Part shown: positions 10,869-37,782 of the stretch, in pieces
Numbering within the stretch: position 1 is the first letter of the stretch
Layout of the letters: the number at the start of each line of letters is the position of its first letter
DNA from: Rhodocyclales bacterium RIFCSPLOWO2_02_FULL_63_24
GTDB lineage: Bacteria > Pseudomonadota > Gammaproteobacteria > Burkholderiales > Rhodocyclaceae
Assembly: GCA_001828935.1 (NCBI GenBank)
Contig: MHZX01000068.1
Span: 1-56,844, forward strand
Length of the DNA stretch: 56,844 nucleotides
Reading direction: 5' to 3'
Notes under the pieces: generated by a model
Databases searched by the model: none
The model's input: only the letters and a program-made list of their open reading frames with translations
Told to the model about the DNA's origin: nothing
Position numbers and translations under genes: made by a program

Positions 10869-10869
10869 T

Positions 10870-11889: not shown

Positions 11890-11971
11890 GGTGTTGTCGC
11901 CTCCGCAGGGCCGCCCCAAGGAGGCGACGAGTCAGTGGATTGGAAGCCGCGCCGCGGCTGAACCGTTGTCA

Positions 11972-12003
11972 CCCCCTTCAGGAAGGGGGCTGGGGGGAAG
12001 GGC
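11972..12003. repeat. Short G-rich interspersed repeat with hairpin
   Basis: CCCCCTTC-AG-GAAGGGGG forms an 8-bp perfect stem (11972-11989) and continues into GCTGGGGGGAAGGG. The portion AAGGGGGCTGGGGG recurs at 21280 inside the cobalamin adenosyltransferase gene. Here it lies in the 124-bp gap between the alpha and beta genes of the oxidoreductase operon. It could attenuate or stabilise the mRNA. Confidence 0.6.
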
Positions 12004-12013
12004 GTATTCATTC

Positions 12014-13267: not shown

Positions 13268-13856
13268 GGGCGGCCTCCTGGCGGCGCGTTTCTTCCATCT
13301 TGACGCGAACGAAGTTGTAGGCTTCCGTCGCCCCCGCGACGTTGCCGAGGGCCACCTTGCCCGAGAATTTGTCGTTGATGGCCATGACCACCGATTCCAG
13401 GCGGATGACCTTGGACACCGCGGCGAAGCCGCCCAGCAGCGGCACGTTGGGTACCGGCCGGCCGACGTGCTTGAGCGCCAGTTCCATGGCCGGCACGGTG
13501 CATAGCCGTTCGTGGCGCCAGTCGCGGACGAAGTCGCCGAGGCCGAGCTGGTCGAAGCTCTTGCTGGTGTTGATCAGGATGTAGCCGTCTTTCTTCAGTC
13601 CGGCGAAGACATCGACCTGATGCAGCAGGGTCGGGTCCTGGATGATGATCGCGTCGGGCTCCATGATCGGCTCGCGCAGGCGTATCTCTTTGTCGGCGAT
13701 GCGACAGAAGGCCACCACCGGCGCTCCCATGCGCTCCGAACCGAAGCTGGGGAAGGCCTGCGCGTGCCGGCCTTCTTCGAACGCGGCGACCGATAGCATC
13801 TCGGCCGCGGTGACGACGCCCTGACCGCCGCGGCCGTGTATTCGAACCTGGAACAT
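13260..13856 (-). CDS. 2-oxoacid:acceptor oxidoreductase, gamma subunit
   Basis: A 198-residue PorG-type subunit and the first gene of the four-gene operon. Diagnostic segments are the N-terminal 'IHGRGGQGVVTAAEMLS', 'FPSFGSERMGAPVVAFCRI' and 'DAIIIQDPTLL', then 'LGGFAAVSKVI'. This domain binds CoA in related enzymes. Gene order gamma-alpha-beta-FAD/Fd resembles the pad and por clusters of Rhodocyclales. The operon is divergent from aroG, with about 140 bp between them for both promoters. Confidence 0.9.
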   Translation of the reverse strand: MFQVRIHGRGGQGVVTAAEMLSVAAFEEGRHAQAFPSFGSERMGAPVVAFCRIADKEIRLREPIMEPDAIIIQDPTLLHQVDVFAGLKKDGYILINTSKSFDQLGLGDFVRDWRHERLCTVPAMELALKHVGRPVPNVPLLGGFAAVSKVIRLESVVMAINDKFSGKVALGNVAGATEAYNFVRVKMEETRRQEAAHA

Positions 13857-24432: not shown

Positions 24433-25805
24433 TCAATCCGGCGCGGGATTGTCGTCGGGGTTCTTCGGCTTGAGCTTGCGCCAGAGCGAACTGCGATTGA
24501 TGCCCAACGCCTGTGCGGCGAGAGTCTGGTGGCCGCCGACGGCGTCGAGCACCCAGCGGATGTAATCGCGCTCCTGCTCGTCCAGCGTCGGTATGCGGCC
24601 ATTCTTCTTGCGGAACACCGCGAGCTCGCCGGATCGCAAATGAGGCGGCAACTGCTCCAGCCCCAGGGTGTCGCCGACGGAAATTGCCACTCCGCGCTCG
24701 ATGATATTTTCCAGCTCGCGCACGTTGCCCGGGAACGCATAGGCCTGCACACGCTCGAGTGCATCGGGTGCGATTACCGAGACCGGCTGGCCCATCTGCA
24801 GCGCAAATTTGTGCAGAAGGTGTTGTGCCAGCAACGGAATGTCGTCGGGCCGCTGCGCCAGCGGCGCGATGTGCAGGGCGACCACATTGAGGCGGAAGTA
24901 CAGGTCCTGGCGCAGGATCTGGTCCGCGACGGCCTGTGCGACGTCGCGATTGGTTGCAGCGACGACGCGGATGTCAACCTTGGTCGGTGCGGTCGCTCCG
25001 AGACGCAGCACCTCTTTCTCCTGGATGACGCGCAGCAGCTTGACCTGCATCTCCGGCGGCATCTCGGTGATCTCGTCGAGAAACAGCGTGCCGCCCGATG
25101 CGGCCTCGATCAGGCCCTTGCGCGCGCTTGCGGCGCCGGTGAAGGCTTCGCGCCCATGGCCGAAAGCTCGTTGGCGAACAGTTCCTTGTTGAAGGCGCCG
25201 CAATTGACTGCGACCAGTGGGCCGTTGTGGCGGCCGCTGTGCCGATGGAGGAATTGCACCAGCAGTTCCTTGCCGGTGCCGCTGTCGCCGGTAACGAGGA
25301 CGTTGCAGTCGGTGGGGGCGATTTGTCGCGCCAGGTCGAGCAGGCGCAGGGTGGCAGGATCCTGGGTGATGAATTTCGCCTTGCCGCGGTAGCTGGCGAT
25401 CTCGGCTCGCAGCCGCTGGTTTTCACGGCGCAGCCGCAGCTTTTCCAGCGCCTCGGCGACGACTTTCCTGACTTCGTCGAAATGGAAGGGCTTGGCAATG
25501 TAATGGAAGGCGCCCAGCTTCATCGCGCTTACCGCGGTTTCCGTGGTGGCGTAGCCGGTGATGACGATCACTTCGCTGTCGGGGTGGAGCTCCTTGCAGG
25601 CCTTGAGCAGGGCCATGCCGTTGATCTTTTCCATGCGCAGGTCGGTCAGCAGCAGGTCGAAGGGCCGGCTTTCGAGCAATGTCAGGCCTTCGCTGCCGCT
25701 TTGCGCCGTGGTGACCTCGTATCCCTCCGCCGTCATGACGTGGCTCAAGTTGCGCACGGCGATTTCCTCGTCGTCGACGATCAGGATTCGATCAGGCTTA
25801 TTCAT
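24433..25805 (-). pseudogene. NtrC-family sigma-54 response regulator with a frameshift
   Basis: Start ATG 25805 overlaps the kinase stop. Receiver domain: 'ILIVDDEE', 'DLLLTDLRMEKINGMALL', 'VITGYATTETAVSAM', 'KPFHF'. The sigma-54 AAA+ domain follows: '[22 protein letters not shown]' in part, '[12 protein letters not shown]' (the GAFTGA loop as EAFTGA), '[13 protein letters not shown]', '[11 protein letters not shown]' and '[16 protein letters not shown]'. The C-terminal Fis-type HTH is '[19 protein letters not shown]'. Between 'KELFANEL' and '[11 protein letters not shown]' one base is missing near 25163-25166 (an AAA run on the plus strand), so the ORF is split at the start of the oligomerisation loop. 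It is either a sequencing indel or a true pseudogene. The truncated partner kinase argues for real decay. Confidence 0.85.
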
Positions 25806-26175
25806 ATGCATGTGCAATTTCACCGTCTTGCGGCAGCCGCATGACGAAGGTGGCGCCGCGGCCATCTTCGCTGGATGCCGAGACGCAGCCGCGGTGCTCT
25901 TCGACAATCTGGTAGACGATGAACAGGCCCAGCCCCATGCCTTTACCAACCTCCTTGGTGGTGAAGAACGGATCGAAGATGCGCGGCAGGATCTGCGGGG
26001 GAATTCCCGGGCCGTCGTCGTTGACGCGGATGTCGACGGCGGCCATCTCGCGGCAGGGCGCAAGACCCGGGTCGACCGGCGCGGCGGCGCCGGCGGCATG
26101 CCGGTTGGCAGCGATCGTCACGCGGCCGTTCTCGCCAGAGGCCTGCATGGCGTTCTTGATCAGGTTATGGTCTAT
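25798..26175 (-). pseudogene. Histidine kinase remnant, ATP-binding domain only
   Basis: What remains starts inside the N box ('[20 protein letters not shown]'). It keeps the G1 box '[11 protein letters not shown]', the F box '[22 protein letters not shown]' (with G2) and the end of the HATPase fold. Sensor, dimerisation helix and phosphorylated His are all missing; an in-frame TAA stands at 26178-26176. The break lies against the unassigned scar that follows. It overlaps the regulator gene by eight bases, as in an intact two-component operon, so the pair was once functional. Confidence 0.85.
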
Positions 26176-26414
26176 TTAGGATTGCTAATATCATTTGCTC
26201 CGTGAAGATAAGGTCAAGACGCGGGATGTGTTGGCGCTGTATCGCCATCCGCTACGGCGAGGAGCGCGTCTTTTGCTCGACTGCCTTGTAGCGCAGTTGC
26301 TTCATCAGCGCCGATTCCCCAGACCAGCTTTAAGCATTGCGCCATGGGCTATGCTGGGTGCTACACAAGGACAGACATGGGACGCAAGATTTTCTTTTTG
26401 CCGGGAGAGCCTTG
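26176..26414. other. Unassigned spacer at the kinase breakpoint
   Basis: About 240 bp between the beheaded kinase and the start of the P-loop gene. It begins with an AT-richer stretch (26176-26215) unlike the surroundings. A short plus-strand open frame from 26195 ('LREDKVKTRDVLALYRHPLR') has no recognisable family. I interpret it as the scar of a deletion or departed mobile element. No terminal repeat or transposase motif was identified. Confidence 0.35.
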
Positions 26415-28163
26415 ATGGGCGGCGAGAACGCCTCTGCCGGCGCAGGCTCGGCCTGGAATCCGGGCGTCGGTACGGGCATCCCCGCAGAGTTCCGGACGCT
26501 GGAGACGATCTTCCGCCCGGACTGCGTCTTCAGCGGCGTCGCCGAGATCGACGAGTTCGCCGCGCTGACCGGGCTGCCGCACGAGGAACTGACGGTATTC
26601 CGGCCGCAGCGGCTGGCGCTGCATGAAATCATCATTCGCGTGACAGCCGATATCGCGGTTGCCGAAGGCGACGAGGAAGAGGATTTTGGGCGCAATTTCC
26701 GCCGCATCGCGGTGAAGATCCGCGACGACTTCGTCGCCCCGCAGATGGCCGCGATCGAACAGGCCTACGCCGACCTCGCCCAGCGCGCCGATGCGCTGGT
26801 GCGCCGGATTCTTGCCGAAACCTTGTTCGCGCCGCCGCAGCCGCCGCCCTCGCGCGGCTGGTTCGGCCGCTGGCGCAGGCCAGCGCGCCCGGGTCCGGCG
26901 CCGGAATCGGCCGCGGAGCGCGAGTACCGCATCGTTGCGGCCTACAAGACGCTGGGCCTGGACGCCGCGGACCCCCTGCGGCGCGCGGTATTCAAGAGCC
27001 TCTACCGGGTGCTCGGCGCGCTGGCCGGCCGGCGCGGGCGCCTGGGGGCGGACCGGGAGCTGCTGGCGAAACTGGTCGTCCGCCACGTCTGCAACAGCCA
27101 GGGCAGCCAGGCGATCGGCCACATCATCGCGCCGCTGGTCGACGCCGCCATCGCGCGCCAAGGCTACGTCCGCGTCGCCACGCAAGCGGCGCCGGTGCTG
27201 ATCAGCCTGAAGGGCGCCTCGGCGGCCGGCAAGAGCTCGCTACGGCCGATGCTGAAGCAGATCCTGCGCGAGCAGGGCATCGAAGCCGACGGCTATGCCA
27301 CCATCAGCCCCGACGTCTGGCGGCGCCAGTTGCTCGACTATGGGTCGCTCGGGCCGGCGCGCAAATATGCCGGCCACCTGACCAGCCGCGAGCTGATGGT
27401 GATCGACGGCAAACTCGATCGCTACATCCGCGACAAGGCCAATCGGGAAGGAGCCATCCCCCACTTGCTGGTCGATCGCTTCCGTTTTGACAGCTTTACC
27501 GCCGAGAAGGTGGCGCGGGTGCTGCACGACACCTACGCCCGCTACGTCGACACGATGTACATGTACTTCATCGTTACGCCGCCCGAGGAAACCGTCGAGC
27601 GCGGTTGGCAGCGGGCGCTGGAGCGGGGCCGCTACAAGGCCGTGGAAGATTTCCTGGCGCACGGCGTGGAAGCCTATCGCGGCATGCCGAAGATCCTGTT
27701 CAAATGGCTGGCCAGTCCCCGGCCGGAATACCGCTACGTCTTCCTCGACAATCGGGTGCCGCGCGGCACCTTTCCCAAGACCATTGCCCGCGGCGACCGC
27801 GGCGCGATGGTGATTTACGACCCGGTGGCGTTCATCGACATCGAGCGCTACCAGAAGATCGACATCAACGCCGCCTCGCCGGAGGCGGTCTATCCCTCTG
27901 CCGCGGAGATGACCGTCGCAGCGAATTCGGGCTTCCTGAAGGAATGCGTGCGGCGCATCGGAACGCTTGAATTCGTCGATCGGAGCAGCGGCATGACCTA
28001 CCTTCGGGCGCGCCAGGGAAACTTCGAGGTACTCGATGCGGCCCTGCTCGCACGGGTGCTAAGCGATCGGGAACTGGCTGCCACGCTGGGCGAGATTGCG
28101 CCCCGCATTGTGGCTCCAGGCCAGGAGTCGGCGCCGGCGGCACGGCGCGATACGCTGTCCTGA
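26415..28163 (+). CDS. Large P-loop protein with zeta-toxin-like kinase core, function unknown
   Basis: 582 residues. The first ~255 form an unrecognised helical region containing a Pro/Arg-rich linker near 138-166. A Walker A loop 'LKGASAAGKSSLRPML' starts at about 265. It is followed by 'GYATISPDVWRRQLLDY', 'HLTSRELMVIDGKLDRYIRD', 'LLVDRFRFDSF' and 'MYFIVTPPEETVERGWQRALERG'. That arrangement resembles the zeta-toxin/AAA-33 kinase fold (P-loop, then a conserved Asp, then a lid Arg cluster). No epsilon-type antitoxin is adjacent. Start ATG 26415 follows GGGAGAG. It sits intact between two decayed loci. The true substrate is unknown. Confidence 0.65.
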   Translation: MGGENASAGAGSAWNPGVGTGIPAEFRTLETIFRPDCVFSGVAEIDEFAALTGLPHEELTVFRPQRLALHEIIIRVTADIAVAEGDEEEDFGRNFRRIAVKIRDDFVAPQMAAIEQAYADLAQRADALVRRILAETLFAPPQPPPSRGWFGRWRRPARPGPAPESAAEREYRIVAAYKTLGLDAADPLRRAVFKSLYRVLGALAGRRGRLGADRELLAKLVVRHVCNSQGSQAIGHIIAPLVDAAIARQGYVRVATQAAPVLISLKGASAAGKSSLRPMLKQILREQGIEADGYATISPDVWRRQLLDYGSLGPARKYAGHLTSRELMVIDGKLDRYIRDKANREGAIPHLLVDRFRFDSFTAEKVARVLHDTYARYVDTMYMYFIVTPPEETVERGWQRALERGRYKAVEDFLAHGVEAYRGMPKILFKWLASPRPEYRYVFLDNRVPRGTFPKTIARGDRGAMVIYDPVAFIDIERYQKIDINAASPEAVYPSAAEMTVAANSGFLKECVRRIGTLEFVDRSSGMTYLRARQGNFEVLDAALLARVLSDRELAATLGEIAPRIVAPGQESAPAARRDTLS

Positions 28164-28168
28164 TTGCA

Positions 28169-28184
28169 GAACAACAACCTTGTT
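28169..28184. repeat. Perfect inverted repeat ACAACAA-CC-TTGTTGT
   Basis: A 7+2+7 palindrome five bases after the P-loop gene stop and about 100 bp before the SulP pseudogene. No T run follows, so an operator is as likely as a terminator. Confidence 0.5.
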
Positions 28185-28286
28185 GTCTCCAATGTATTAG
28201 GCGCTGCTACGATCGAGCGCTTCGTCAAGGGAGCGTCAAGAACCGATGCACGCCCCGCTCCTTGCCCACAGAGTGAGTTCCCGGAC

Positions 28287-30427
28287 ATGAGCTTCTCACC
28301 GTCGCTGCTGCGGTTCCTGCCTTTCCTGCGTTGGCTGCCCTACGGCGGGGCGACGCTGCGAGCCGACTTCCTCGCCGGTCTGACGGTGGTCCTGGTGCTG
28401 GTGCCGCAGTCGATGGCCTATGCCCAGCTGGCCGGCCTGCCGGCTTATTACGGGTTCTATGCGGCCTTCCTGCCGGTGATGGTGGCCGCGATGTAGGGCT
28501 CGTCGAACCAGCTCGGAACCGGACCGGTGGCCGTGGCCTCGCTGCTTACGGCTTCGTCGCTGACGTCGCTGGCGGCGCCAGGTTCCGAGCAATTCATTGC
28601 CCTCGCGATCATGCTGGCCCTTTTGGTCGGGATCGTCCAACTGGTTCTCGGGGCGTTCAAGCTCGGCGTCATCGTGAACTTCCTGTCGCACCGGTGATCG
28701 TCGGCTTTACCAACGCAGCGGCCATGATCATCGGCCTGTCGCAGGTCAACAAGCTGATCGGCGTGCCGATGGGACGGTCGGAACACTTCATCCAGGACAT
28801 CTGGGGCGTTGCCAAGCAGGTGGGCGATACCCACCTGCCGATTTTGGCCATGGGTGCGGCCGCCATCGCCATCATCTGGGCGATCCGCAAGAAGGCGCCG
28901 AAGCTTCCCGGCATGCTGATCGCCGTGGCCGTGACGACGACGGCGTCGTGGCTGATCGGTTTCGAGCGCGACGCCGTCGCGACGATCGACCAGGTGGCAG
29001 AATCCGAGGCCAAGGCCTTGCTGACCGAGTTTGTCCGCACCGATGCGCGGATCAAGGAGATCAACGAGCAGCTTGCCGCCAGGACCGCCGAGTTGAAGGC
29101 GCTGCGCACGGAGCGCGGCGATCTTTCCCACCAAGCGGTGACGCTGAACTACGAGGTGGAATTGCTGCGCCTGCAGCTCAAAGACCGCGAGGACGAGAAT
29201 CGCCGCCGCAATCGGGCAATACGCAGCTTTGTCTTCGAGCGCGTCGTCGCAGCGGATGGCCAGGCGGCGGAACTCTATGCCGAAGGCAAGGTACCGCAAG
29301 GCAAGGCGTCGGATGGCCACCGCTGGCGCATCGCCCGTGCGGCCTCGGGCAGCATGAGGCTGACCGGCGGCGGCGAGGTGGTCGGTAAGGTGCCGGAAGG
29401 CCTGCCCTCCGTCGGCGTGCCGAAAATGTCCTGGGAGATGCCCGGCAGCCTGCTCTCGGCCGCCATCGTCATCTCGCTGGTGGGGTTCATGGAGGCGATT
29501 TCCATCGCCAAGGCCATCGCCGCCACGACCAAACAGAAGATCGACCCGAACCAGGAACTCATCGGCCAGGGGCTGGCCAACATCGTCGGTGCCGCGACCC
29601 AGGCGTTTCCGGTTTCGGGTTCCTTCTCGCGCTCGGCGGTAAATATCAATGCCGGGGCGAAGACCGGCATGTCTTCCTGATTCACCGGCCTCTTCGTGCT
29701 GCTGACCCTGCTGTTCCTGACGCCGCTGCTCTATCACCTGCCGCAGGCGGTGCTGGCCGCGGTGATCATCATGGCGGTGATCGGCCTGATCAATTTCGCG
29801 GCGGTCAAGCATGCCTGGCAGGCCAACAAGCACGACGGCATCGCCGCCGTGGCAACCTTCGTCGCCATCCTGGCCGCGGCGCCCCATCTCGACAACGGGA
29901 TCATGGTCGGCGCCGGCCTGGCCATCGGTCTCTACCTGTATCGCGCCATGTCGCCGCGCGTGGCCATTCTCGGCCGGCATGCTGACGGCAGCTTGCGCGA
30001 CGCACGGGTGCATAACCTGCCGCCCTCCGAGATCGTGACCGCAGTGCGCTTCGACGGCCGCCTGTACTTCGCCAACGTGGCCTTCTTCGAGGATGCGATC
30101 CTCGATGCGGTGGCGGCCAACCCCAAGGCGCACGCCCTGCTGGTGGCGGGCGAAGGGATCAACGAACTCGATGCTTCCGGCGAGGAGGTGATGCATCACG
30201 TGGTTCAGCACCTGCCGGACGCCGGAATTTCATTGTCATTTTCCGGCCTCAAGAAGCAGGCGGTGGACGTAATGCGCGCCACGGGGTTGCTCGAGTTCAT
30301 AGGCGAACGGAATATCTATCCGACCGCCGATGATGCGCTGGAGGCCATCCACAGCGAGGCTGCAGCGCGCGGTCTGGACGATTCCGCGTGCCCGCTGCGG
30401 CCGCTTGCGGCACAGCGATTTGCATGA
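28287..30427 (+). pseudogene. SulP-family anion transporter, inactivated, with a coiled-coil insertion
   Basis: Continuous SulP-STAS homology runs through three lesions. The N-terminus 'LAGLTVVLVLVPQSMAYAQL' ends at a TAG (28494) in '...MVAAM*GSSNQLGTGPVA'. One base is lost near 28692 between 'VIVNFLSH' and 'PVIVGFTNAAAMIIGL'. A TGA (29678) interrupts 'GAKTGMSS*FTGLFVLLTLL'. The C-terminal STAS-like part continues to 30427. Between 'WLIGFERDAVATI' and 'PKMSWEMPGSLLSAA' there is an insertion of about 140 residues rich in Glu, Leu and Arg heptads ('IKEINEQLAARTAELKALRT'), an apparent coiled coil absent from ordinary SulP proteins. Either stop could arise from a TGG Trp codon by one G-to-A change. 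It directly precedes the Hyf-type operon. Confidence 0.85.
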
Positions 30428-30607: not shown

Positions 30608-32620
30608 GTGCTGACCGGGCTTCCGCATCTTGACTGGTTGTTGTGGCTGTGCGCCGCCTGGCTTACGGTGGGCGCGCTCGGCATCGTCGCGTTGCGGCGC
30701 TTCGAGTTCGTCTCCCACGTGCTGTTCCCCCTCGGCGGCCTGATTTGCCTCGGCGTTTTCCTGGTCGCATTGAATGCGGTTTTCGCTGTACCGGAGTTGG
30801 CGGTGCTGCCGCTGGGATTGCCCGGTCTGCCCTTCCACCTCCGCCTCGACGCGCTTGCCGCGCTGTTCATCGCAGTAATTGGCGGGGTCGGTACCGGCGT
30901 CTCGGTGTTCGCCGCGGGCTATTTCCGCAAGGGCGAGGGTACCCCCCCCGGGCTGCTTTGCCTGCAGTACCACATCTTTATGGCGAGCATGGTCATGGTG
31001 GTGCTGGCCGACGATGCCTACGTTTTCATGGTGATGTGGGAGACCATGGCGATGTCATCGTTCTTCCTGGTTACCAGCAACCATCGCATCGAGGCGATCC
31101 GTCGTGCCGGCTATCTCTACCTGCTGGTGGCGCATATCGGCGCCATCGCGATCCTGCTTTGTTTCGGCGTGCTGCAGGCGAACACCGGCGACTACACCTT
31201 TGCCAACATGCGCGCCCAGCAACTTTCTCCGTTCTGGGCTTCCGCCGCATTCCTGCTTGCAGTGTTCGGCTTCGGCGCCAAGGCCGGCATCGTGCCGCTG
31301 CACGTCTGGTTGCCCGAGGCGCATCCGGCGGCGCCATCGCCGGTATCGGCGCTGATGAGCGGCGTGATGCTGAAAACAGCGATCTACGGATTGCTGCGGG
31401 TGAGCTTTGACCTCCTGCATGTGCAGTTGTGGTGGTGGGGCGTGATCCTGCTTGCGCTGGGTTTGGTCACGGCGCTGTTCGGCGTGATTTTCAGCGCGGT
31501 GCAGACCGACATGAAGCGGCTGCTGGCGTATTCCTCGATCGAGAATATCGGCCTGCTCTGCGTCGGCATGGGATTGGGCGTGCTGTTCAAGGCCTATCGC
31601 ATGGACGGACTGGCGGCGCTGGCGCTCACCGCCTGCCTCTATCATGTCGCCAGCCATGCCTTCTTCAAGAGTCTGCTGTTCGTAGGTACCGGTTCGGTGC
31701 TGCATGCCACGGGCGAACGCAACCTCGGTCGCCTGGGCGGCTTGATGCGCTACATGCCCTGGGTGGCCTGGGCCACGCTGGTCGGCGTGCTGGCCAGCGC
31801 GGGCTTGCCGCCTTTCGGCGGCTTCGTTTCGGAGTGGTTGCTGTTACAAAGCTTCCTGTTCACTCCAGGCCTGCCCGATCCCTTCCTGAACATGCTGATC
31901 CCTGTGGTGGCGGCCGCGGTGGCCCTGGTGGCGGCGCTGGCCGGGTTCGCCATGGTCAAGTTCTTCGGCGTAATCTTTCTCGGACAGCCGCGCGAGGAAA
32001 AACTGGCGAAGGCGCATGATGCAGCGTGGTGGGAGCGTGCGGGCATGTTCTGGCTGGTAGCCGGCTGTCTGGTGCTGGGTTTGTTCCCGGTGCACGTCAT
32101 CGAGCCCATCGGACGCGTTACGCTGCTGCTGGTCGGGCAGAACCTGGCCGACACGGTGCGCACCAATGGCTGGTTCCTGCTGGCGCCGATGTCGGTCGAT
32201 CGGGCCAGCTACGCGCCCTTGGTATTCCTCGTGGTCGGCGCGGCGAGTTTCTATCTGGCCGTGATCATCGTGCGGGTGCTCTATCGTGGTCAGCTGCGGC
32301 GTGCCGCGCCGTGGGATTGCGGCTATCCAGCCGGTAATGCGCGCATGCAGGATACCGCTGAAGGCTTCGGCCAGCCGATCCGCCGGATGTTCGAGCCCTT
32401 CTTCCGCATGGAGGTCAAGCTTCCCTCGCCCTTCGACGAGAAGCCGGTGTATCGCATCCGCGTCGACGACCACTTCTGGCACTGGATCTACCTGCCGATC
32501 GCCGTGGCGACGGAAGCGGTGGCCAAGCTGGTCGGGCGCTTGCAGCAGGGACGCATTTCGGTCTATCTGCTATACAGCTTCGTGACCCTGATCGCCATGC
32601 TGGTGCTGGTGAGGCTATGA
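30608..32620 (+). CDS. hyfB: HyfB-like antiporter-type membrane subunit
   Basis: A 670-residue NuoL/NuoM/MrpA-type subunit with about fourteen or more membrane helices and a C-terminal extension, the size of HyfB. Proton-translocation residues are visible: the TM5 Glu in 'FMVMWETMAMSSFF', the TM7 Lys in 'FGFGAKAGIVPLHVWLPEAHPAAPSPVSALMSG' (read in two parts), and 'KRLLAYSSIENIG'. It starts with GTG at 30608. It is the first gene of a six-gene operon with overlapping or near-overlapping junctions. In the complex it should conduct protons or sodium ions coupled to electron transfer in the HyfG/HyfI arm. Confidence 0.92.
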   Translation: MLTGLPHLDWLLWLCAAWLTVGALGIVALRRFEFVSHVLFPLGGLICLGVFLVALNAVFAVPELAVLPLGLPGLPFHLRLDALAALFIAVIGGVGTGVSVFAAGYFRKGEGTPPGLLCLQYHIFMASMVMVVLADDAYVFMVMWETMAMSSFFLVTSNHRIEAIRRAGYLYLLVAHIGAIAILLCFGVLQANTGDYTFANMRAQQLSPFWASAAFLLAVFGFGAKAGIVPLHVWLPEAHPAAPSPVSALMSGVMLKTAIYGLLRVSFDLLHVQLWWWGVILLALGLVTALFGVIFSAVQTDMKRLLAYSSIENIGLLCVGMGLGVLFKAYRMDGLAALALTACLYHVASHAFFKSLLFVGTGSVLHATGERNLGRLGGLMRYMPWVAWATLVGVLASAGLPPFGGFVSEWLLLQSFLFTPGLPDPFLNMLIPVVAAAVALVAALAGFAMVKFFGVIFLGQPREEKLAKAHDAAWWERAGMFWLVAGCLVLGLFPVHVIEPIGRVTLLLVGQNLADTVRTNGWFLLAPMSVDRASYAPLVFLVVGAASFYLAVIIVRVLYRGQLRRAAPWDCGYPAGNARMQDTAEGFGQPIRRMFEPFFRMEVKLPSPFDEKPVYRIRVDDHFWHWIYLPIAVATEAVAKLVGRLQQGRISVYLLYSFVTLIAMLVLVRL

Positions 32621-33561
32621 GCTGGTCGGGCGTCTTCTCGCAATTGCTGGAAATCGTCGCCGCCCTGTTGCTGGCGCCGCTCCTGACCGGCTGGGTGAAC
32701 CAGTGCCGCGCCTGGCTGCAGAACAAGTCGGCGCCAAGTCTACTGCTGCAGTACCAGATGCTGCGCAAGCTGTTCCACAAGGAGTCGGTGGTTGCCGAGC
32801 ACGCCTCGCCGCTGTTCCGCATCGCACCTTATATCGTGTTCGGCTGCATGGCGCTGGCCAGCGGCATCATTCCCACCCTGTCCATCGACCTGCCGCTGTC
32901 GCCGGCGGCCGACGCCATCGCGCTGGTCGGCTTGTTCGCCTTCGCCCGCGTCTTCATTTCCCTGGCGGCGATGGATATCGGCACCGCCTTCGGCAGTCTG
33001 GGTGCGCGCCGCGAAATGCTGATCGGTTTTCTCGCCGAACCGGCGCTGCTGATGGTGCTGTTTTCGGCGTCGCTGATCACGCAGTCGACCTCGCTCACCA
33101 GCGTCATCGAGACACTGGCGCACCGCGAGTTCGTCATCTATCCGAGCCTGGCTTTCGCCGGCGTCGCGTTCACCCTGGTGTCGCTCGCTGAAAACGCCCG
33201 CGTGCCGGTCGACAACCCGAGCACCCACCTGGAATTGACCATGATTCATGAGGCGATGATCCTCGAATATTCCGGACGCCACCTGGCCCTGATCGAATGG
33301 GCCGCCAGCCTCAAGCTGTTCGCCTACTCCTGTATCGGGCTGACGCTGTTCTTTCCTTGGGGCTTGGCCGAGGTCGGTTCGCCGGGGGAAATGATTCTCG
33401 CCCTGCCGGTGCTGGTTCTCAAGCTCGCCATCGGCGGCGCTTTGCTGGCGCTGATCGAGGCGGTCAGCGCCAAGATGCGCATTTTCCGCGTTCCGGAATT
33501 TCTCGCCACTGCGTTCATGCTCGCGGTGATAGGCATGCTGGTGCATTTCCTTCTCGGTTAA
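32617..33561 (+). CDS. hyfC: HyfC-like (NuoH-type) membrane subunit
   Basis: A 314-residue respiratory-chain complex I subunit 1 family protein (HyfC/HycD/EchB) with about eight helices. Typical segments are 'LLLQYQMLRKLFHKESVV' after the first helix, 'GFLAEPALLMVLFSAS', 'NPSTHLELTMIHEAM' and 'YSGRHLALIEWAASLKLF'. It links the peripheral arm to the antiporter subunits and carries the acidic residues of the quinone/ion channel region. ATG 32617 overlaps the hyfB stop (ATGA). Confidence 0.92.
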   Translation: MSWSGVFSQLLEIVAALLLAPLLTGWVNQCRAWLQNKSAPSLLLQYQMLRKLFHKESVVAEHASPLFRIAPYIVFGCMALASGIIPTLSIDLPLSPAADAIALVGLFAFARVFISLAAMDIGTAFGSLGARREMLIGFLAEPALLMVLFSASLITQSTSLTSVIETLAHREFVIYPSLAFAGVAFTLVSLAENARVPVDNPSTHLELTMIHEAMILEYSGRHLALIEWAASLKLFAYSCIGLTLFFPWGLAEVGSPGEMILALPVLVLKLAIGGALLALIEAVSAKMRIFRVPEFLATAFMLAVIGMLVHFLLG

Positions 33562-34226
33562 TGATGATGCAGGCCTACCTGATCCAGTCCGTCAATCTGT
33601 TTGCCTCGGCGCTGCTGCTGCTGTCCTTCGCCATGCTGTCGCAGCGGCGCATTTTGTCGCTGATCCATCTGTTTACCTTGCAAGGGGCAGCCTTGGTCGC
33701 CGCGACTGTGGTCGTCGCCTACGTCACCAATCAGCATCATCTTTACTACTCCGCCGCGATCACGCTGGTAACCAAGGTGATCGTCATCCCGATCCTGTTG
33801 CACCGGCTGATCGACAGGCTCAACGTCAAATGGGACGTGGAGACGCTGATCAATATTCCGACCACCATGCTGCTCGGCATCCTGTTGGTGGTGTTCGCCT
33901 TCAACCTGGCGCTGCCGATCGCCAAGCTGTCTTCGTCCATCGTGCACAGCACGCTCGGCATTGCGCTGGCCTGCGTGCTGCTTTCATTCATGATGATGAT
34001 CACGCGCGCCAAGGCGGTGCCCCAGGTGATTGGTTTTCTTTCGATGGAGAACGGCCTGTTTTTTGCCGCCACCGCGGCTACCTACGGCATGCCGATGGTG
34101 GTCGAGTTCGGCATTGCCTTCGACGTCTTGGTCGGCATGTTCATTCTCGGCGTGTTCATGTTCCAGATTCGCGAGCAGTTCGACAGCCTGGACATCCGGC
34201 ATCTGGAAAAACTCAAGGAAGACTAG
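33561..34226 (+). CDS. hyfE: HyfE-like membrane subunit
   Basis: A 221-residue subunit whose N-terminal part resembles NuoK ('LLLSFAMLSQRRILSLIHLFTLQGAAL', in two parts) and whose C-terminal part has further helices, as in HyfE. 'VPQVIGFLSMENGLFF' contains the conserved membrane Glu. Three ATGs are in tandem at 33561, 33564 and 33567; the first overlaps the hyfC stop. About six or seven helices are predicted. Confidence 0.9.
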   Translation: MMMQAYLIQSVNLFASALLLLSFAMLSQRRILSLIHLFTLQGAALVAATVVVAYVTNQHHLYYSAAITLVTKVIVIPILLHRLIDRLNVKWDVETLINIPTTMLLGILLVVFAFNLALPIAKLSSSIVHSTLGIALACVLLSFMMMITRAKAVPQVIGFLSMENGLFFAATAATYGMPMVVEFGIAFDVLVGMFILGVFMFQIREQFDSLDIRHLEKLKED

Positions 34227-34232
34227 CCCGAG

Positions 34233-35687
34233 ATGGAACAATTGCTGCTTGTTCTCGCCGTTCCCCTGCTCGGTGGTTTTGTGCTGGCCTTGTGCGGGCA
34301 TCGCGACTATGCGCCGGAGGTCAACGTCGGCGTCAGCCTCGGCACCCTGGTTGCCGCCGGCCTGCTGACGGCGCGAATCATAGACCGCGGACCCATGCTG
34401 GCCTTCGACGACCAGTTCTTCGTCGATCCGCTCAACGTCTTCCTGATCGCGCTGACTGCCTTTGTCGGCTTCACCACCTCGGTTTTCTCGCGGCCCTACA
34501 TGCGTCACGAGCGTGACTGCGGCAAGATGACGCCGGGACGGATGCGTCTCTATCACAGCATGTATCAGCTGTTCAACTTCACCATGCTGGTTGCCTTGTC
34601 CACCAACAACCTCGGCATTCTTTGGGTTGCGATGGAAGCGGCGACGCTGACCACCGTGTTGCTGGTCAGCGTCTATCGCACCGCAGCCAGCCTGGAAGCC
34701 GCCTGGAAATATTTCATTCTCTGCGGCGTCGGCATTGCCCAGGCCCTGTTTGGCACCATCCTGCTCTACCTGGCGGCCGACAAGGTGATCGGCGCCGGCG
34801 GCGGTGCCCTGCTGTGGACCAACCTGGAGGCGGTGAAGGCCCAGCTCGAACCCAACGTCATGGCGCTGGCTTTCGTCTTTCTGCTGCTTGGCTATGGCAC
34901 CAAGGTGGGCCTGGTCCCGGTCCATAACTGGCTTCCGGATGCTCACGCCGAAGGTCCGACGCCGATCTCGGCAGTGCTGTCTGGCTTGCTCTTGAATGTT
35001 GCCCTGTATGCGGTCCTGCGCTGCAAAATGCTGACGGACGGAGCTCTCGGCAATCATCTTGCGGGCCATTTGATGATCGGCTTCGGCCTGCTTTCGGTGG
35101 TCGCCGCGGCCTTCTTTCTGTCGCGGCAGAAAGACATCAAGCGCATGTTCGCCTATTCCTCGATCGAGCACATGGGCCTGATGACTTTTGCTTTCGGTCT
35201 GGGCGGGCCGATCGCCAACTTCGCCGGTCTGCTGCACATGACGGTCCATTCGCTGATCAAGTCAGCCATCTTCTTCGCCGTCGGCCATGCCGCGCAGAGC
35301 GCCGGCAGCCAACTGATGGAAAAGATTCGCGGCCTGATCAAGGTCAATCCCATGGTCGGCTGGGGCTTGCTGCTGGGTACGTTGGCGATCCTTGGCATGC
35401 CGCCCTTCGGTGTATTCGCCAGCGAATTCCTGATTCTCACTACCGCCATGCGCGACTTGCCGTGGGCGACGCCGTTCCTGTTGCTGGCGCTGGGCGTGGC
35501 TTTCGCTTCGATCTTCAGCCGGGTGCAGGAGATGGTGTTTGGCGACACGGATTTGAAGCCGCTGGAGCATCCGCCGGCCTTGTTGCCCGTATTTGTTCAT
35601 CTCGGCCTTGGCCTGATGCTGGGCGTCTACATTCCACCCTATCTGGTGGACTGGTATCAGCAGGCCGCCAAAATGATCGGAGGATGA
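34233..35687 (+). CDS. hyfF: HyfF-like antiporter-type membrane subunit
   Basis: A 484-residue second antiporter-like subunit. The TM5 Glu appears in 'ILWVAMEAATLTTVLLV', the TM7 Lys in 'GYGTKVGLVPVHNWLPDAHA', then 'GPTPISAVLSGLLLNVALYA' and 'KRMFAYSSIEHMGLM'. It provides another ion pathway, so with HyfB the complex has two; HyfD, the third antiporter of E. coli Hyf, is absent. A GGAGG near its end serves the next gene. Confidence 0.92.
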   Translation: MEQLLLVLAVPLLGGFVLALCGHRDYAPEVNVGVSLGTLVAAGLLTARIIDRGPMLAFDDQFFVDPLNVFLIALTAFVGFTTSVFSRPYMRHERDCGKMTPGRMRLYHSMYQLFNFTMLVALSTNNLGILWVAMEAATLTTVLLVSVYRTAASLEAAWKYFILCGVGIAQALFGTILLYLAADKVIGAGGGALLWTNLEAVKAQLEPNVMALAFVFLLLGYGTKVGLVPVHNWLPDAHAEGPTPISAVLSGLLLNVALYAVLRCKMLTDGALGNHLAGHLMIGFGLLSVVAAAFFLSRQKDIKRMFAYSSIEHMGLMTFAFGLGGPIANFAGLLHMTVHSLIKSAIFFAVGHAAQSAGSQLMEKIRGLIKVNPMVGWGLLLGTLAILGMPPFGVFASEFLILTTAMRDLPWATPFLLLALGVAFASIFSRVQEMVFGDTDLKPLEHPPALLPVFVHLGLGLMLGVYIPPYLVDWYQQAAKMIGG

Positions 35688-35692
35688 TGCCG

Positions 35693-37261
35693 ATGCCGCT
35701 CTCCGCACTCAATTGCCAGTTCCATGCACTGCCCGGGCCGCTGCCGATGCAGCGTGCCACGGTGACGCGCGAGCAGTGGCAGATGGCGCCAGCCGCAGTC
35801 GATCAGGTCGGGGGCCGCTTGGTTTCCCTGTGGGGTTCGGACCGGCGCGGGATCGACGGCGGGTTTGCCGTTTCGGCCGCCTATGCATTGGCCGAAGGCC
35901 TGGCCTGGCTCAGTTTGCCCATACCCGTGCCCTTGCCCGATGCGGCGGGCGCGGGGCAAGCCTCCTATCCGGATATCGCTCGCGTATTTCCCGCTGCCGG
36001 CCGCATGCAGCGCGCCTGTCGCGACCTGCTCGGACTGGTCGCCGAGGACGCGACCGACCAGCGGCCATGGCTGCGGCACGGCGCCTGGCCCGAGGACTAT
36101 TTTCCCTTGCGCCGCGAGAATTCCGGCGCCGAGTCATTCGCGTTGACTCCCGAGTCCTATCCGTTCGTGCTGGTCGAGGGCGACGGCGTACACGAGATTG
36201 CGGTCGGCCCGGTTCATGCCGGAATCATCGAGCCGGGGCACTTCCGTTTTTCGGTGATCGGCGAGCGCGTGTTGCGCCTCGAACAGCATCTGGGCTACAA
36301 GCACAAAGGCATCGAAAAGCGCTTTGAGCACATCGCGCCGCTGGACGGGTACCGACTCGCGGGGCGCGTCTCGGGCGATTCCACCGTGGCCTTTGCCTGG
36401 GCTTATTGCATGGCGCTCGAGTCGATCGCCGGCTGCGAAATTTCATGGCGTGCGCGGTGGTTGCGCGCCCTGCTGCTGGAGCGCGAGCGGGTTGCCAACC
36501 ATCTGGGTGATCTCGGTGCGCTGGGCAACGACGCCGCGCTCGGCTTCGGCCTGGCGCAGTTCTCGCGCCTCAAGGAAGACTGGTTGCGGCTGAACCGCGA
36601 ACTGTTCGGCCATCGCTTCATGATGGACCGGGTGGTCCCCGGCGGGGTCGATGTCGACCTCGATGCCAACGCCGGAGAGCGCATACGCCGCCAGTGCGAC
36701 GAGATCGAGGCCGACGTACGGACCTTGAAGGGAATCTACGACGAACACAGCGGACTGCAGGATCGTTTCCTGACTACCGGGCGCGTATCGCCCAAGCTGG
36801 CGGCGCAACTCGGCCTGTGCGGCATGGCGGGCCGGGCCAGCGCGCAGGCCAGCGATTTGCGCATGGATTTCGCATGGGAGCCCTATGCTGCCTTGCAGGC
36901 GACCATGGTCAGCCACCGCAACGGCGACGTCGCGGCACGGGTGACGGTACGATTCGAGGAAATCCTCGAATCGCTGCGCCTGATCCGGGAGACGGTCAGG
37001 CGGCTGCCGCAGGGGACGCTGCGCATCGCGCTGAATCCGCTGCCTGCTGAAGGCGTCGGCGCCGGTTGGGTCGAGGGCTGGCGCGGCGACGTACTGGTGA
37101 CGCTGGAGCTTGAGGCAGGCGGCATTCGCCGCTGTCACTGCCATGATCCGTCGTGGCAGAACTGGCCCTTGCTGGAACACGCCGTGATGGACAACATCGT
37201 TCCGGATTTCCCGCTGATCAACAAATCTTTCAATCTCAGTTATTCGGGGCAGGATCTCTGA
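35693..37261 (+). CDS. hyfG: HyfG-like large subunit lacking all nickel ligands
   Basis: 522 residues: an N-terminal NuoC-like region (~1-150) fused to a NuoD/hydrogenase-large-subunit-like domain ('HFRFSVIGERVLRLEQHLGY', 'KHKGIEKRFE', 'ALLLERERVANHLGDLGALGND'). In [NiFe] hydrogenases the L1 motif CGxC and the L2 motif DPCxxC hold the nickel. Here L1 reads RVSGDS (S227-S230) and L2 reads DPSWQN (485-490), so all four cysteines are missing. The subunit also ends in 'INKSFNLSYSGQDL' without the usual cleaved maturation tail. It cannot be a hydrogenase and fits the Ehr class. The start at 35693 has GGAGG nine bases upstream; ATGs at 35684 and 35687 are alternatives overlapping hyfF. Confidence 0.9.
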   Translation: MPLSALNCQFHALPGPLPMQRATVTREQWQMAPAAVDQVGGRLVSLWGSDRRGIDGGFAVSAAYALAEGLAWLSLPIPVPLPDAAGAGQASYPDIARVFPAAGRMQRACRDLLGLVAEDATDQRPWLRHGAWPEDYFPLRRENSGAESFALTPESYPFVLVEGDGVHEIAVGPVHAGIIEPGHFRFSVIGERVLRLEQHLGYKHKGIEKRFEHIAPLDGYRLAGRVSGDSTVAFAWAYCMALESIAGCEISWRARWLRALLLERERVANHLGDLGALGNDAALGFGLAQFSRLKEDWLRLNRELFGHRFMMDRVVPGGVDVDLDANAGERIRRQCDEIEADVRTLKGIYDEHSGLQDRFLTTGRVSPKLAAQLGLCGMAGRASAQASDLRMDFAWEPYAALQATMVSHRNGDVAARVTVRFEEILESLRLIRETVRRLPQGTLRIALNPLPAEGVGAGWVEGWRGDVLVTLELEAGGIRRCHCHDPSWQNWPLLEHAVMDNIVPDFPLINKSFNLSYSGQDL

Positions 37262-37782
37262 TGTGGCGCATGCTGGTACAAATTGCGAAGAACGGCCTGC
37301 GCACCGAGCCGCGGCCGGAGGCCAATGACGACTGGCGCATCGAGCGGGCGGAGGCAGAGCGCATCCATGCCGATATCCTGGCCATTCTCGGCCGTGCGCT
37401 GACCATCCGCGAAGTCGATGCCGGTTCCTGCAACGGCTGCGAACTCGAAATCCACGCGCTCAACAACCCCTACTACAACATCGAGGGCCTCGGCATCAAG
37501 TTCGTCGCCAGCCCGCGCCATGCAGACATGCTGCTGGTCACCGGCCCGGTCTCGCGTCACATGGAGGTGGCGCTGCAGCGGACCTATGCGGCAACACCCG
37601 CGCCCAAGCTGGTGGTGGCAGTCGGCGACTGCGGCTGCAGCGGTGGAATATTTGGCGAGAGCTATGCGAGCTGCGGCAAGGTGTCCAACGTGATTCCGGT
37701 CGATGTCGCGGTGCCCGGTTGCCCGCCGCCGCCGCTCGATCTGTTGCGCGGCATCCTGACGGCGATTCGCCGTCGGGAGTAG
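37261..37782 (+). CDS. hyfI: HyfI-like (NuoB-type) small subunit with one [4Fe-4S] cluster
   Basis: 173 residues. Four cluster cysteines are present: 'SCNGCELEIHALNNP', 'VGDCGCSGGIF' and 'VPGCPPPPLDLLRGIL', the NuoB/HyfI arrangement of the cluster next to the catalytic or quinone site. ATG 37261 overlaps the hyfG stop. It is the last gene of the operon; the next gene is convergent. No HyfA/HyfH-type polyferredoxin gene is present, so the electron donor to this cluster must be a soluble ferredoxin or an unlinked protein. Confidence 0.92.
   Translation: MWRMLVQIAKNGLRTEPRPEANDDWRIERAEAERIHADILAILGRALTIREVDAGSCNGCELEIHALNNPYYNIEGLGIKFVASPRHADMLLVTGPVSRHMEVALQRTYAATPAPKLVVAVGDCGCSGGIFGESYASCGKVSNVIPVDVAVPGCPPPPLDLLRGILTAIRRRE

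What the first reader, a model, noticed from the sequence alone, without database searches (positions are those of the whole stretch)
30608..37782. Hyf-type ion-pumping complex with no nickel site (Ehr class)
The operon has HyfB, C, E, F, G, I architecture, but HyfG reads RVSGDS in place of the L1 CGxC and DPSWQN in place of the L2 DPCxxC. No maturation tail or Hyp genes are seen. The antiporter Glu/Lys residues and all four HyfI cysteines are intact. Established: Ehr complexes lack the NiFe cysteines and their reaction is unknown. Inference: electron transfer from HyfI to an unknown acceptor drives ion pumping.
Basis: partly seen in the sequence, partly recalled or inferred. Interest (0 to 1): 0.82.

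Follow-up and report, generated by a model that had tools for sequence, protein, structure and literature searches.

The report
Nickel-free pump linked to carbon uptake
Six neighbouring genes are predicted to build a membrane complex shaped like a hydrogen-making enzyme but lacking every nickel-binding cysteine; in some carbon-fixing relatives the same six genes lie beside SulP anion-transporter and carbonic anhydrase-like genes, so the complex likely helps power the uptake of carbon dioxide or bicarbonate.

Summary
An intact hyfBCEFGI operon lies at 30608-37782 in a Sulfuritalea-like betaproteobacterium. HyfG lacks all four nickel-site cysteines, HyfI keeps its four, and the antiporter residues are conserved. 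One detail is wrong: DPSWQN is not the L2 site. The real L2 position is the C-terminus (NLSYSGQDL-stop), which ends where HycI cleaves E. coli HycE. This is an Ehr-class complex, a known orphan; the six-gene set was described in Cupriavidus in 2010.

What is new is its context. No ferredoxin subunit, formate dehydrogenase or Hyp gene recurs as a neighbour. But in 12 of 46 Ehr-bearing genomes of the order, SulP genes lie within 17 kb of HyfG (0.9 expected; NuoD control 0 of 31), in 7 directly upstream of hyfB. A Cam/CcmM-type gamma-carbonic anhydrase lies within 12 kb in 6 of the 11 Ehr genomes that have one. All 12 linked genomes encode RuBisCO. The window has two SulP genes beside the operon, one of them broken.

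Best reading: an ion pump serving inorganic-carbon uptake, as NDH-1MS and DAB do. Function is inferred and untested. 34 of the 46 show no such link.

The parts
30608..32620 (+). hyfB, large antiporter-like subunit (670 aa); E145, K225, K303, H350, K354, E409 conserved in 68 of 68
32617..33561 (+). hyfC, NuoH/HycD-like membrane subunit (314 aa) with conserved acidic residues (E141, E192, D199, E206, E212, E217 in 73 of 73)
33564..34226 (+). hyfE, HyfE-like small membrane subunit (220 aa)
   Evidence: NCBIfam PRK11492 88.7 bits, below cut-off 136; no Pfam match; aligned in 76 rows
34233..35687 (+). hyfF, antiporter-like subunit (484 aa); E135, K159, K224, K303, H339, K343, E398 conserved in 79 of 79
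35684..37261 (+). hyfG, fused NuoC/NuoD-like large subunit (525 aa; ATG at 35684 or 35687) without NiFe cysteines or C-terminal assembly peptide
36371..36385 (+). former L1 site: residues 230-234 S-G-D-S-T in place of C-G-I-C-G
37145..37162 (+). D-P-S-W-Q-N (residues 488-493): conserved motif, not the L2 site
37232..37258 (+). former L2 site: residues 517-525 N-L-S-Y-S-G-Q-D-L at the very C-terminus, aligned with D-P-C-Y-S-C-T-D-R of HycE
37261..37782 (+). hyfI, NuoB/HycG-like small subunit (173 aa) with C57, C60, C124, C154 for one [4Fe-4S] cluster (cluster inferred)
28164..30427 (+). SulP gene of the insert-bearing (about 720 aa) kind directly upstream of hyfB, broken here (in-frame stops and a change of frame); an intact copy sits in the same place in L009
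25798..26148 (-). C-terminal piece (HATPase_c, 116 aa) of a histidine kinase
24433..26099 (-). NtrC-type sigma-54 response regulator, readable in two overlapping frames; kin of a regulator near Ehr in L169, L173, L175, L176, L179 and L180
21712..24333 (-). second SulP gene (873 aa, SulP-STAS-Usp), intact

Best explanation
The six genes likely encode a nickel-free, complex I-like ion pump of the Ehr class that is predicted to power inorganic-carbon uptake together with SulP transporters and carbonic anhydrase. Shown by sequence: the six-gene set; loss of all four NiFe ligands and of the maturation tail; conserved pump residues; four HyfI cysteines; recurrent SulP and gamma-carbonic anhydrase neighbours in part of the relatives, most of them RuBisCO-bearing. 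Inferred: HyfI holds one [4Fe-4S] cluster. With no HyfH/NuoI-type subunit, a soluble carrier such as reduced ferredoxin would dock on HyfI directly. The electrons would go to an acceptor, perhaps quinone, in the rebuilt HyfG/HyfI pocket. Proton movement through HyfB, HyfF, HyfC and HyfE would keep CO2 hydration running towards bicarbonate by removing its proton, or drive SulP import. The acceptor, the electron donor and the direction of pumping are not known.
For: Not a hydrogenase; HycE is cleaved after Arg537 (PMC7654741, passages) and the window's L525 aligns with it. No conserved gene beyond the six in 110 loci, and no formate, Hyp or ferredoxin family seen twice or more among 153 immediate neighbours. 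Carbon link: SulP within 17 kb of HyfG in 12 of 46 Ehr genomes, 0.91 expected, 0 of 200000 simulations reach 12; with one genome per family, 5.5 linked on average against 0.45 expected over 25 families, 0 of 20000 draws. Control: NuoD-like matches in the 31 of these 46 genomes where one was listed, 0 linked. SulP is directly upstream of hyfB on the same strand in 7 of the 12 (G000, G431, G311, G421, G329, G416, G357), with gaps of 20-94 bp in five. Gamma-carbonic anhydrase lies within 12 kb in 6 of the 11 Ehr genomes that have it, 0.1 expected, 10 bp upstream of hyfB in L181; it is Cam/CcmM-like. A CsoSCA-like protein adjoins hyfI in L172 and L174. RuBisCO is 6.4 kb from HyfG in G311. A NuoL-like gene and DabA lie about 1.5 kb downstream in L023. 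12 of 12 SulP-linked genomes have RuBisCO against 17 of 34 unlinked. The linked label needs at least 10 changes on the HyfG tree, so several lineages are involved. Acidithiobacillus caldus hyf is reported next to a beta-carbonic anhydrase (PMC3826726, passages).
Against: 34 of 46 Ehr genomes of the order show no SulP within 17 kb, though short contigs may hide some. RuBisCO within 25 kb of HyfG occurs in only 2 of 46 (6.4 and 19.5 kb) against 1 of 31 for the NuoD control, so RuBisCO adjacency itself is not enriched. The Ehr-RuBisCO co-occurrence (29 of 46 against 28 of 104) shrinks to median p 0.044 with one genome per family and vanishes inside families (1381 of 5000 shuffles). Of five plasmid loci fetched, four carry annotation (two Rhizobium, Paraburkholderia, Methylocalor) and none shows carbon genes within 9 kb of HyfG. 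SulP proteins can carry sulfate, and a TauE/SafE gene lies near Ehr in 5 of the 12 linked genomes. The NCBIfam BicA model is far below cut-off (183.8 and 149.4 of 880). The window genome has no gamma-carbonic anhydrase of this type at 1e-25, and its adjacent SulP is broken. No activity data exist.
Confidence: 0.42

Rival explanations
1. A redox pump with no special carbon role: ferredoxin (or flavodoxin) gives electrons to HyfI, which reduces quinone or another acceptor in the old NiFe pocket, and the membrane arm pumps protons, as an extra respiratory entry point. The SulP link would then be a side effect of clustering energy genes.
For: HyfI cysteines are invariant in all sets examined; antiporter and NuoH-like residues are kept; many Ehr operons, including annotated rhizobial and Paraburkholderia plasmid copies, have no carbon genes nearby. 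The window carries a 2-oxoacid:ferredoxin oxidoreductase cluster that could supply reduced ferredoxin.
Against: The complex I quinone Tyr position is G231 and the His position is I182 in the window (residue roles recalled). It does not predict the SulP and gamma-carbonic anhydrase linkage.
Confidence: 0.27
2. A pmf-driven vectorial carbonic anhydrase or bicarbonate pump like DAB, in which the Fe-S cluster is structural and there is no net redox reaction.
For: No dedicated electron-input subunit; carbon-gene neighbours as for the best explanation; a NuoL-like gene and DabA beside Ehr in L023. DAB2 is reported as a pmf-driven vectorial CO2 hydratase (PMC13144422, part of the abstract and passages).
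Against: Four invariant HyfI cysteines suggest that the cluster does redox work. Neither DabA nor CupA is part of the six genes.
Confidence: 0.15
3. A sulfur-linked role: SulP moves sulfate and TauE/SafE moves sulfite, and Ehr helps energise sulfur-oxyanion traffic in sulfur oxidisers.
For: SulP in 12 of 46 and TauE/SafE near Ehr in 5 of these 12; the nearest named genome is Sulfuritalea.
Against: Gamma-carbonic anhydrase, CsoSCA-like and DabA neighbours do not fit; insert-type SulP genes lie within 2-10 kb of RuBisCO in G340, G341, G381 and G383. A SulP beside a carbonic anhydrase gene is predicted to carry bicarbonate in A. ferrooxidans (PMC6458275, passages).
Confidence: 0.1
4. A working hydrogenase or formate hydrogenlyase.
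For: Overall HycE/HyfG similarity (7z0s_E best PDB match by sequence and fold).
Against: All four NiFe ligands, the assembly peptide and the HyfA, HyfD, HyfH subunits are absent. Ehr expression did not rise with H2 in Nitrospira moscoviensis (PMC12342949, passage).
Confidence: 0.01

Closest known systems
[quoted passage not shown]
   Same: Group 4-like large subunit lacking CxxC pairs, Mrp/complex I-like membrane subunits; function unknown or hypothetical in print (PMC6349859, PMC10284858, PMC7304191, PMC12342949; passages seen).
   Different: Ehr of Margulisbacteria/Saganbacteria is discussed with formate dehydrogenase (PMC6349859); here no formate partner recurs and inorganic-carbon genes do in part of the loci.
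hyfBCEFGI of Cupriavidus metallidurans CH34 (Rmet_4666-4671) and C. necator H16 (H16_A2196-A2201)
   Same: The same six genes, described in 2010 as an incomplete hyf operon very unlikely to act in lithotrophic growth (PMC2864759, section 22 read).
E. coli hydrogenase 4 (Hyf) and hydrogenase 3 (Hyc)
   Same: Subunit kinds and order B-C-E-F-G-I; HyfG matches HycE 7z0s_E at 2.1e-52.
   Different: No HyfA, HyfD, HyfH, HyfJ; no NiFe ligands; no 32-residue assembly peptide (PMC7654741).
Mycobacterium tuberculosis rv0082-rv0087
   Same: A six-gene locus annotated as two oxidoreductases plus hycD, hycP, hycQ, hycE (PMC6901956, passages); reported as horizontally acquired (PMC3087520, passages).
   Different: Subunit mapping is recalled and no sequence was compared here.
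Cyanobacterial NDH-1MS
   Same: Complex I-like pump tied to CO2 hydration (PMC6981117, abstract and Discussion read).
   Different: NDH-1MS carries its own carbonic anhydrase module (CupA); ferredoxin-side subunits recalled; the six genes carry neither.
DAB (DabA-DabB) vectorial carbonic anhydrase
   Same: Antiporter-like subunit in inorganic-carbon capture (PMC13144422, passages); a NuoL-like gene and DabA lie beside Ehr in L023.
   Different: No Fe-S protein and no hydrogenase-like subunit (recalled).

Membership tests
Ehr complexes | Large subunit homologous to group 4 hydrogenase/NuoD | tested here: met
Ehr complexes | All NiFe-binding CxxC cysteines absent | tested here: met
Ehr complexes | NuoB-like small subunit with four cluster cysteines | tested here: met
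   81 of 81, 35 of 35
Ehr complexes | Antiporter-like and NuoH-like membrane subunits in the same operon | tested here: met
Ehr complexes | Placement within reference Ehr sequences (HydDB or published trees) | not tested
   reference sets not held; own trees of HyfG only
[NiFe] group 4a hydrogenase (Hyf/Hyc) | L1 CGxC and L2 DPCxxC | tested here: not met
[NiFe] group 4a hydrogenase (Hyf/Hyc) | C-terminal assembly peptide after Arg537 | tested here: not met
   PMC7654741
[NiFe] group 4a hydrogenase (Hyf/Hyc) | Ferredoxin-type subunits HyfA and HyfH | tested here: not met
   absent from the window operon; no conserved extra gene in 110 loci
[NiFe] group 4a hydrogenase (Hyf/Hyc) | H2 activity | not testable with these tools
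   -
Respiratory complex I | Quinone-site Tyr and His of NuoD | tested here: not met
   Tyr position is G231 and His position is I182 (residue roles recalled)
Respiratory complex I | NuoI and NADH module | tested here: not met
   no such genes in the operon
Vectorial carbonic anhydrases (NDH-1MS, DAB) | Carbonic anhydrase subunit (CupA, DabA) in the complex | tested here: not met
   six genes only; gamma-carbonic anhydrase (6 genomes) or DabA (1 locus) genes are neighbours in relatives
Vectorial carbonic anhydrases (NDH-1MS, DAB) | Antiporter-type pump subunits | tested here: met
Vectorial carbonic anhydrases (NDH-1MS, DAB) | CO2 hydration or carbon-uptake activity | not testable with these tools
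BicA bicarbonate transporter (SulP neighbours) | NCBIfam BicA equivalog score over cut-off | tested here: not met
   183.8 and 149.4 bits against 880 for the two SulP proteins scanned; 53.0 for a window piece

The most novel reading that the evidence does not exclude
Ehr is a widespread third kind of energy-driven CO2 hydrator: a nickel-free descendant of the hydrogenase/complex I line whose pump removes the proton of CO2 hydration, with a Cam/CcmM-type gamma-carbonic anhydrase and SulP as encoded partners. It would be the non-photosynthetic counterpart of NDH-1MS, and a bacterial parallel to plant complex I, which also carries gamma-carbonic anhydrases. The rebuilt SGDST / NKSFN[LC]SYSGxDL pocket of HyfG would be its new active or coupling site.
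Probability: 0.2. Interest if true: 0.9.

Novelty: new variant of a known kind. Interest (0 to 1): 0.7.

Why it matters
Ehr complexes are common (57 of 299 sampled Pseudomonadota genomes carry a close HyfG by my count of the rows; 46 of 150 in the order) and have no established function in the papers whose passages I saw. A physical gene link to SulP and gamma-carbonic anhydrase, with DabA and RuBisCO in single loci, turns an open question into a direct test, low-CO2 growth and carbon uptake of a deletion strain, and suggests how hydrogenase-like machines were reused without nickel.

Tried and rejected
Formate, hydrogen or CO partner genes: no such family matches two or more of the 153 immediate neighbours (families matched once are only partly listed there). 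Recurrent neighbours that look like plain synteny: ScpA, MetG. Spermidine synthase recurs (3 upstream and 5 downstream of the 153) without an explanation. An FNR-type site upstream of hyfB: 0 of 94; loose sigma-54-like and NnrR-like patterns are above a simple shuffled mean (15 of 94 against 6.0; 13 of 94 against 5.0), too weak to use. A crude beta-carbonic anhydrase motif search in 118 loci gave two hits that look like chance frames. The AlphaFold model of HyfG (mean pLDDT 82.3) is below 50 in 159-193, 203-206 and 499-525, the loops around the old active site, so pocket geometry could not be judged. Chance as the cause of SulP adjacency was tested and rejected. Closeness of RuBisCO to Ehr was tested and is no better than the control (2 of 46 against 1 of 31). 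RuBisCO tracking Ehr within families was tested and failed. A first neighbour analysis was contaminated by wrong-frame ORFs and was redone with a coding score; gene calls there stay crude. Rows dropped: of 164 neighbours listed, 153 were scanned (74 of 78 and 79 of 86), the others left out by hand without a look at what they are. The first tree labels (17 linked, 8 changes) missed L012 and L080; with these the count is 19 linked and 10 changes. L013 (same genome as L012) and L122, L123 were left out of that tree. The tree used 14 of 80 betaproteobacterial loci. SulP gene numbers for the simulations were merged by hand. The control uses NuoD-like rows visible in the cut list (31 of 46 genomes); two of them (G367, G388) are long, low-identity proteins that may not be NuoD.
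Full report
WHAT IS THERE. The window lies in an assembly of 147 contigs (4.31 Mb). Its closest named match is Sulfuritalea sp. at 87% identity over HyfG. Six plus-strand genes from 30608 to 37782 overlap or lie a few bases apart: hyfB, hyfC, hyfE, hyfF, hyfG, hyfI. Pfam and NCBIfam identify them as hydrogenase-4-like membrane subunits, a fused NuoC/NuoD-like large subunit and a NuoB-like small subunit. HyfE has no Pfam match and scores below its NCBIfam cut-off; HyfC, HyfG and HyfI match Pfam above cut-off but no NCBIfam equivalog over its cut-off. The predicted HyfG structure (mean pLDDT 82.3) has E. coli HycE as its best solved match, TM-score 0.83, with complex I NuoCD next.

THE ACTIVE SITE. 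HyfG was aligned with 80 betaproteobacterial relatives and with E. coli HyfG, HycE and NuoCD. The L1 motif RVCGICG reads RVSGDST: S230 in 80 of 81, G231 and D232 in 81 of 81, S233 in 74 of 81. The true L2 motif, DPCYSCTDR, aligns with N517-L-S-Y-S-G-Q-D-L525, where the protein stops. HycE is cleaved after Arg537 by HycI (PMC7654741, passages), and L525 aligns with that Arg, so the gene seems to encode an already trimmed subunit. In a wider set of 36 (window, 30 sampled Pseudomonadota loci, 5 plasmids) D232, H310, K514, N517, G522 and D524 are invariant and S230 is kept in 34. Position 518 is Cys in 28 and Leu in 5, the window among them, so a lone Cys occurs in many relatives, but no CxxC pair is conserved. 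E183 and H186, shared with the EPGH motif of HycE, are 81 of 81 and 35 of 36. Two complex I quinone residues, Tyr and His of NuoD (roles recalled), are replaced (G231 and I182).

ELECTRONS AND IONS. All four HyfI cysteines are invariant in 81 of 81 and 35 of 35. Antiporter Glu/Lys/His residues of HyfB and HyfF and the acidic residues of HyfC are conserved. No ferredoxin-type subunit (HyfA, HyfH, NuoI) belongs to the operon. The window also encodes a 2-oxoacid:ferredoxin oxidoreductase cluster at about 9.2-13.9 kb, one possible source of reduced ferredoxin; no link is shown.

DISTRIBUTION. In a phylum sample, 57 of 299 Pseudomonadota genomes hold a close HyfG (314 bits or more); a fragment at 219 bits may be a further one, and the next rows start at 190 bits, where the locus checked (L166) is a true Hyc operon (my count of the listed rows). 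In the order, 46 of 150 do. The family groups apart from HycE/HyfG in the tree, but the node that unites it has weak support (48).

NEIGHBOURS. Clustering genes across 110 loci found no conserved extra gene beside the six. Pfam scans of 74 upstream and 79 downstream genes showed mostly local synteny, but SulP came up 5 times and DabA once. I followed this by coordinates. SulP lies within 17 kb of HyfG on the same contig in 12 of 46 Ehr genomes of the order. A random placement given SulP numbers and genome sizes expects 0.91, and none of 200000 simulations reached 12. The 12 come from 6 of 25 families; with one genome drawn per family, 5.5 are linked on average against 0.45 expected, and no random draw of 20000 reached the observed number. 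NuoD-like matches, listed for 31 of the same genomes, give 0 of 31. In 7 of the 12 a SulP gene is directly upstream of hyfB on the same strand; gaps are 20-94 bp in five, 180 bp in the window and 302 bp in G357. On a tree of 126 HyfG sequences (two of them E. coli) the SulP-linked label needs 10 changes, against a shuffled mean of 18, so the link is partly inherited and partly repeated; loci on short contigs count as unlinked there.

CARBON GENES. In 6 of these genomes, near hyfB, sits a hexapeptide protein whose best named models are CcmM (2.5e-39) and carbonic anhydrase (3.1e-35), both below their equivalog cut-offs (two copies scanned), and whose best PDB relatives include the Cam gamma-carbonic anhydrase. 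Three histidines in the Cam spacing are present in all 6 (read by eye; ligand assignment recalled). This gene occurs in 11 of 46 Ehr genomes and lies within 12 kb of HyfG in 6, with 0.1 expected. In L172 and L174 a CsoSCA-like protein adjoins hyfI: TIGR02701 4.8e-10, below cut-off, for one, Pfam CsoSCA_cat 30.8 bits, over its cut-off of 21.5, for the other. In G311 a RuBisCO gene lies 6.4 kb from HyfG, with a LysR-type regulator before it. In Accumulibacter ACC003 (L023) a NuoL-like gene and DabA lie about 1.5 kb downstream. Insert-type SulP genes, the kind beside Ehr in the window, lie 2-10 kb from RuBisCO in four Ehr genomes: G340, G341, G381, G383. Print offers one parallel: in Acidithiobacillus caldus a hyf cluster adjoins a beta-carbonic anhydrase gene (PMC3826726, passages).

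LIMITS. RuBisCO is commoner in Ehr genomes (29 of 46 against 28 of 104, p 4.6e-5), but with one genome per family the median p is 0.044, and shuffling inside families removes it (1381 of 5000). RuBisCO lies within 25 kb of HyfG in 2 of 46 and of the NuoD control in 1 of 31, so its closeness is not evidence by itself. 12 of 12 SulP-linked genomes have RuBisCO against 17 of 34 unlinked. Three quarters of Ehr genomes in the order, and the four annotated plasmid copies looked at, show no such link. SulP may carry sulfate; TauE/SafE lies near Ehr in 5 of the 12. In the window the adjacent insert-type SulP is broken, the histidine kinase is a fragment and the regulator is split between frames; whether this is biology or assembly error cannot be told here. 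The second SulP (SulP-STAS-Usp) is intact.

MECHANISM. The best-supported account is an ion pump of the Ehr class tied to inorganic-carbon uptake. The loss of nickel chemistry, the pump subunits and the gene links are shown; ferredoxin as donor, the acceptor, the direction of pumping and CO2 hydration are inferred. NDH-1MS (PMC6981117, abstract and Discussion) and DAB2 (PMC13144422, passages) show that complex I-like pump subunits can drive CO2 hydration, so the idea has working analogues, but the six genes are not a member of either.

NOVELTY. The six-gene set itself is in print (PMC2864759, section 22 read). Ehr complexes are stated to be of unknown function (PMC10284858, PMC12342949, passages). 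In the listings of ten searches of the paper library, some of them cut to 15-20 papers, and in the passages seen, I found no paper that links Ehr to SulP and gamma-carbonic anhydrase; PMC3826726 comes nearest. The library lacks most subscription journals.

Noticed in passing
An Ehr relative that may have given up ion pumping.
   Followed up: partly
L009 16485-21561: A second, different Ehr operon (HyfG ending NKSVNGSYSGHDL) on the opposite strand close to the first in Sulfuritalea; G419 and G391 also carry two HyfG genes each.
   Followed up: partly
window 9246-13856 (-): 2-oxoacid:ferredoxin oxidoreductase cluster: POR gamma, POR alpha, TPP-binding beta and a Fer4/FAD oxidoreductase.
   Followed up: no
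window 26337-28163 (+): 608-aa protein with weak P-loop kinase (zeta toxin-like) similarity, below cut-off, between the kinase fragment and the broken SulP; no gene of its kind at that place in L009.
   Followed up: no
L156 3575-3871 and 11047-12087; L159 3563-3859 and 11044-12057: On Rhizobium plasmids an HTH regulator overlaps the start of hyfB and a DUF4365 gene follows hyfI closely on the same strand.
   Followed up: no
L158 2999-3832 and other loci listed: Spermidine synthase genes lie beside Ehr in several Burkholderiales loci; meaning unknown.
   Followed up: no
G000 C104, C111, C112, C66, C132: The same genome holds ordinary [NiFe] hydrogenase large-subunit matches (best 772 bits), so the host may well make nickel hydrogenases elsewhere.
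   Followed up: no
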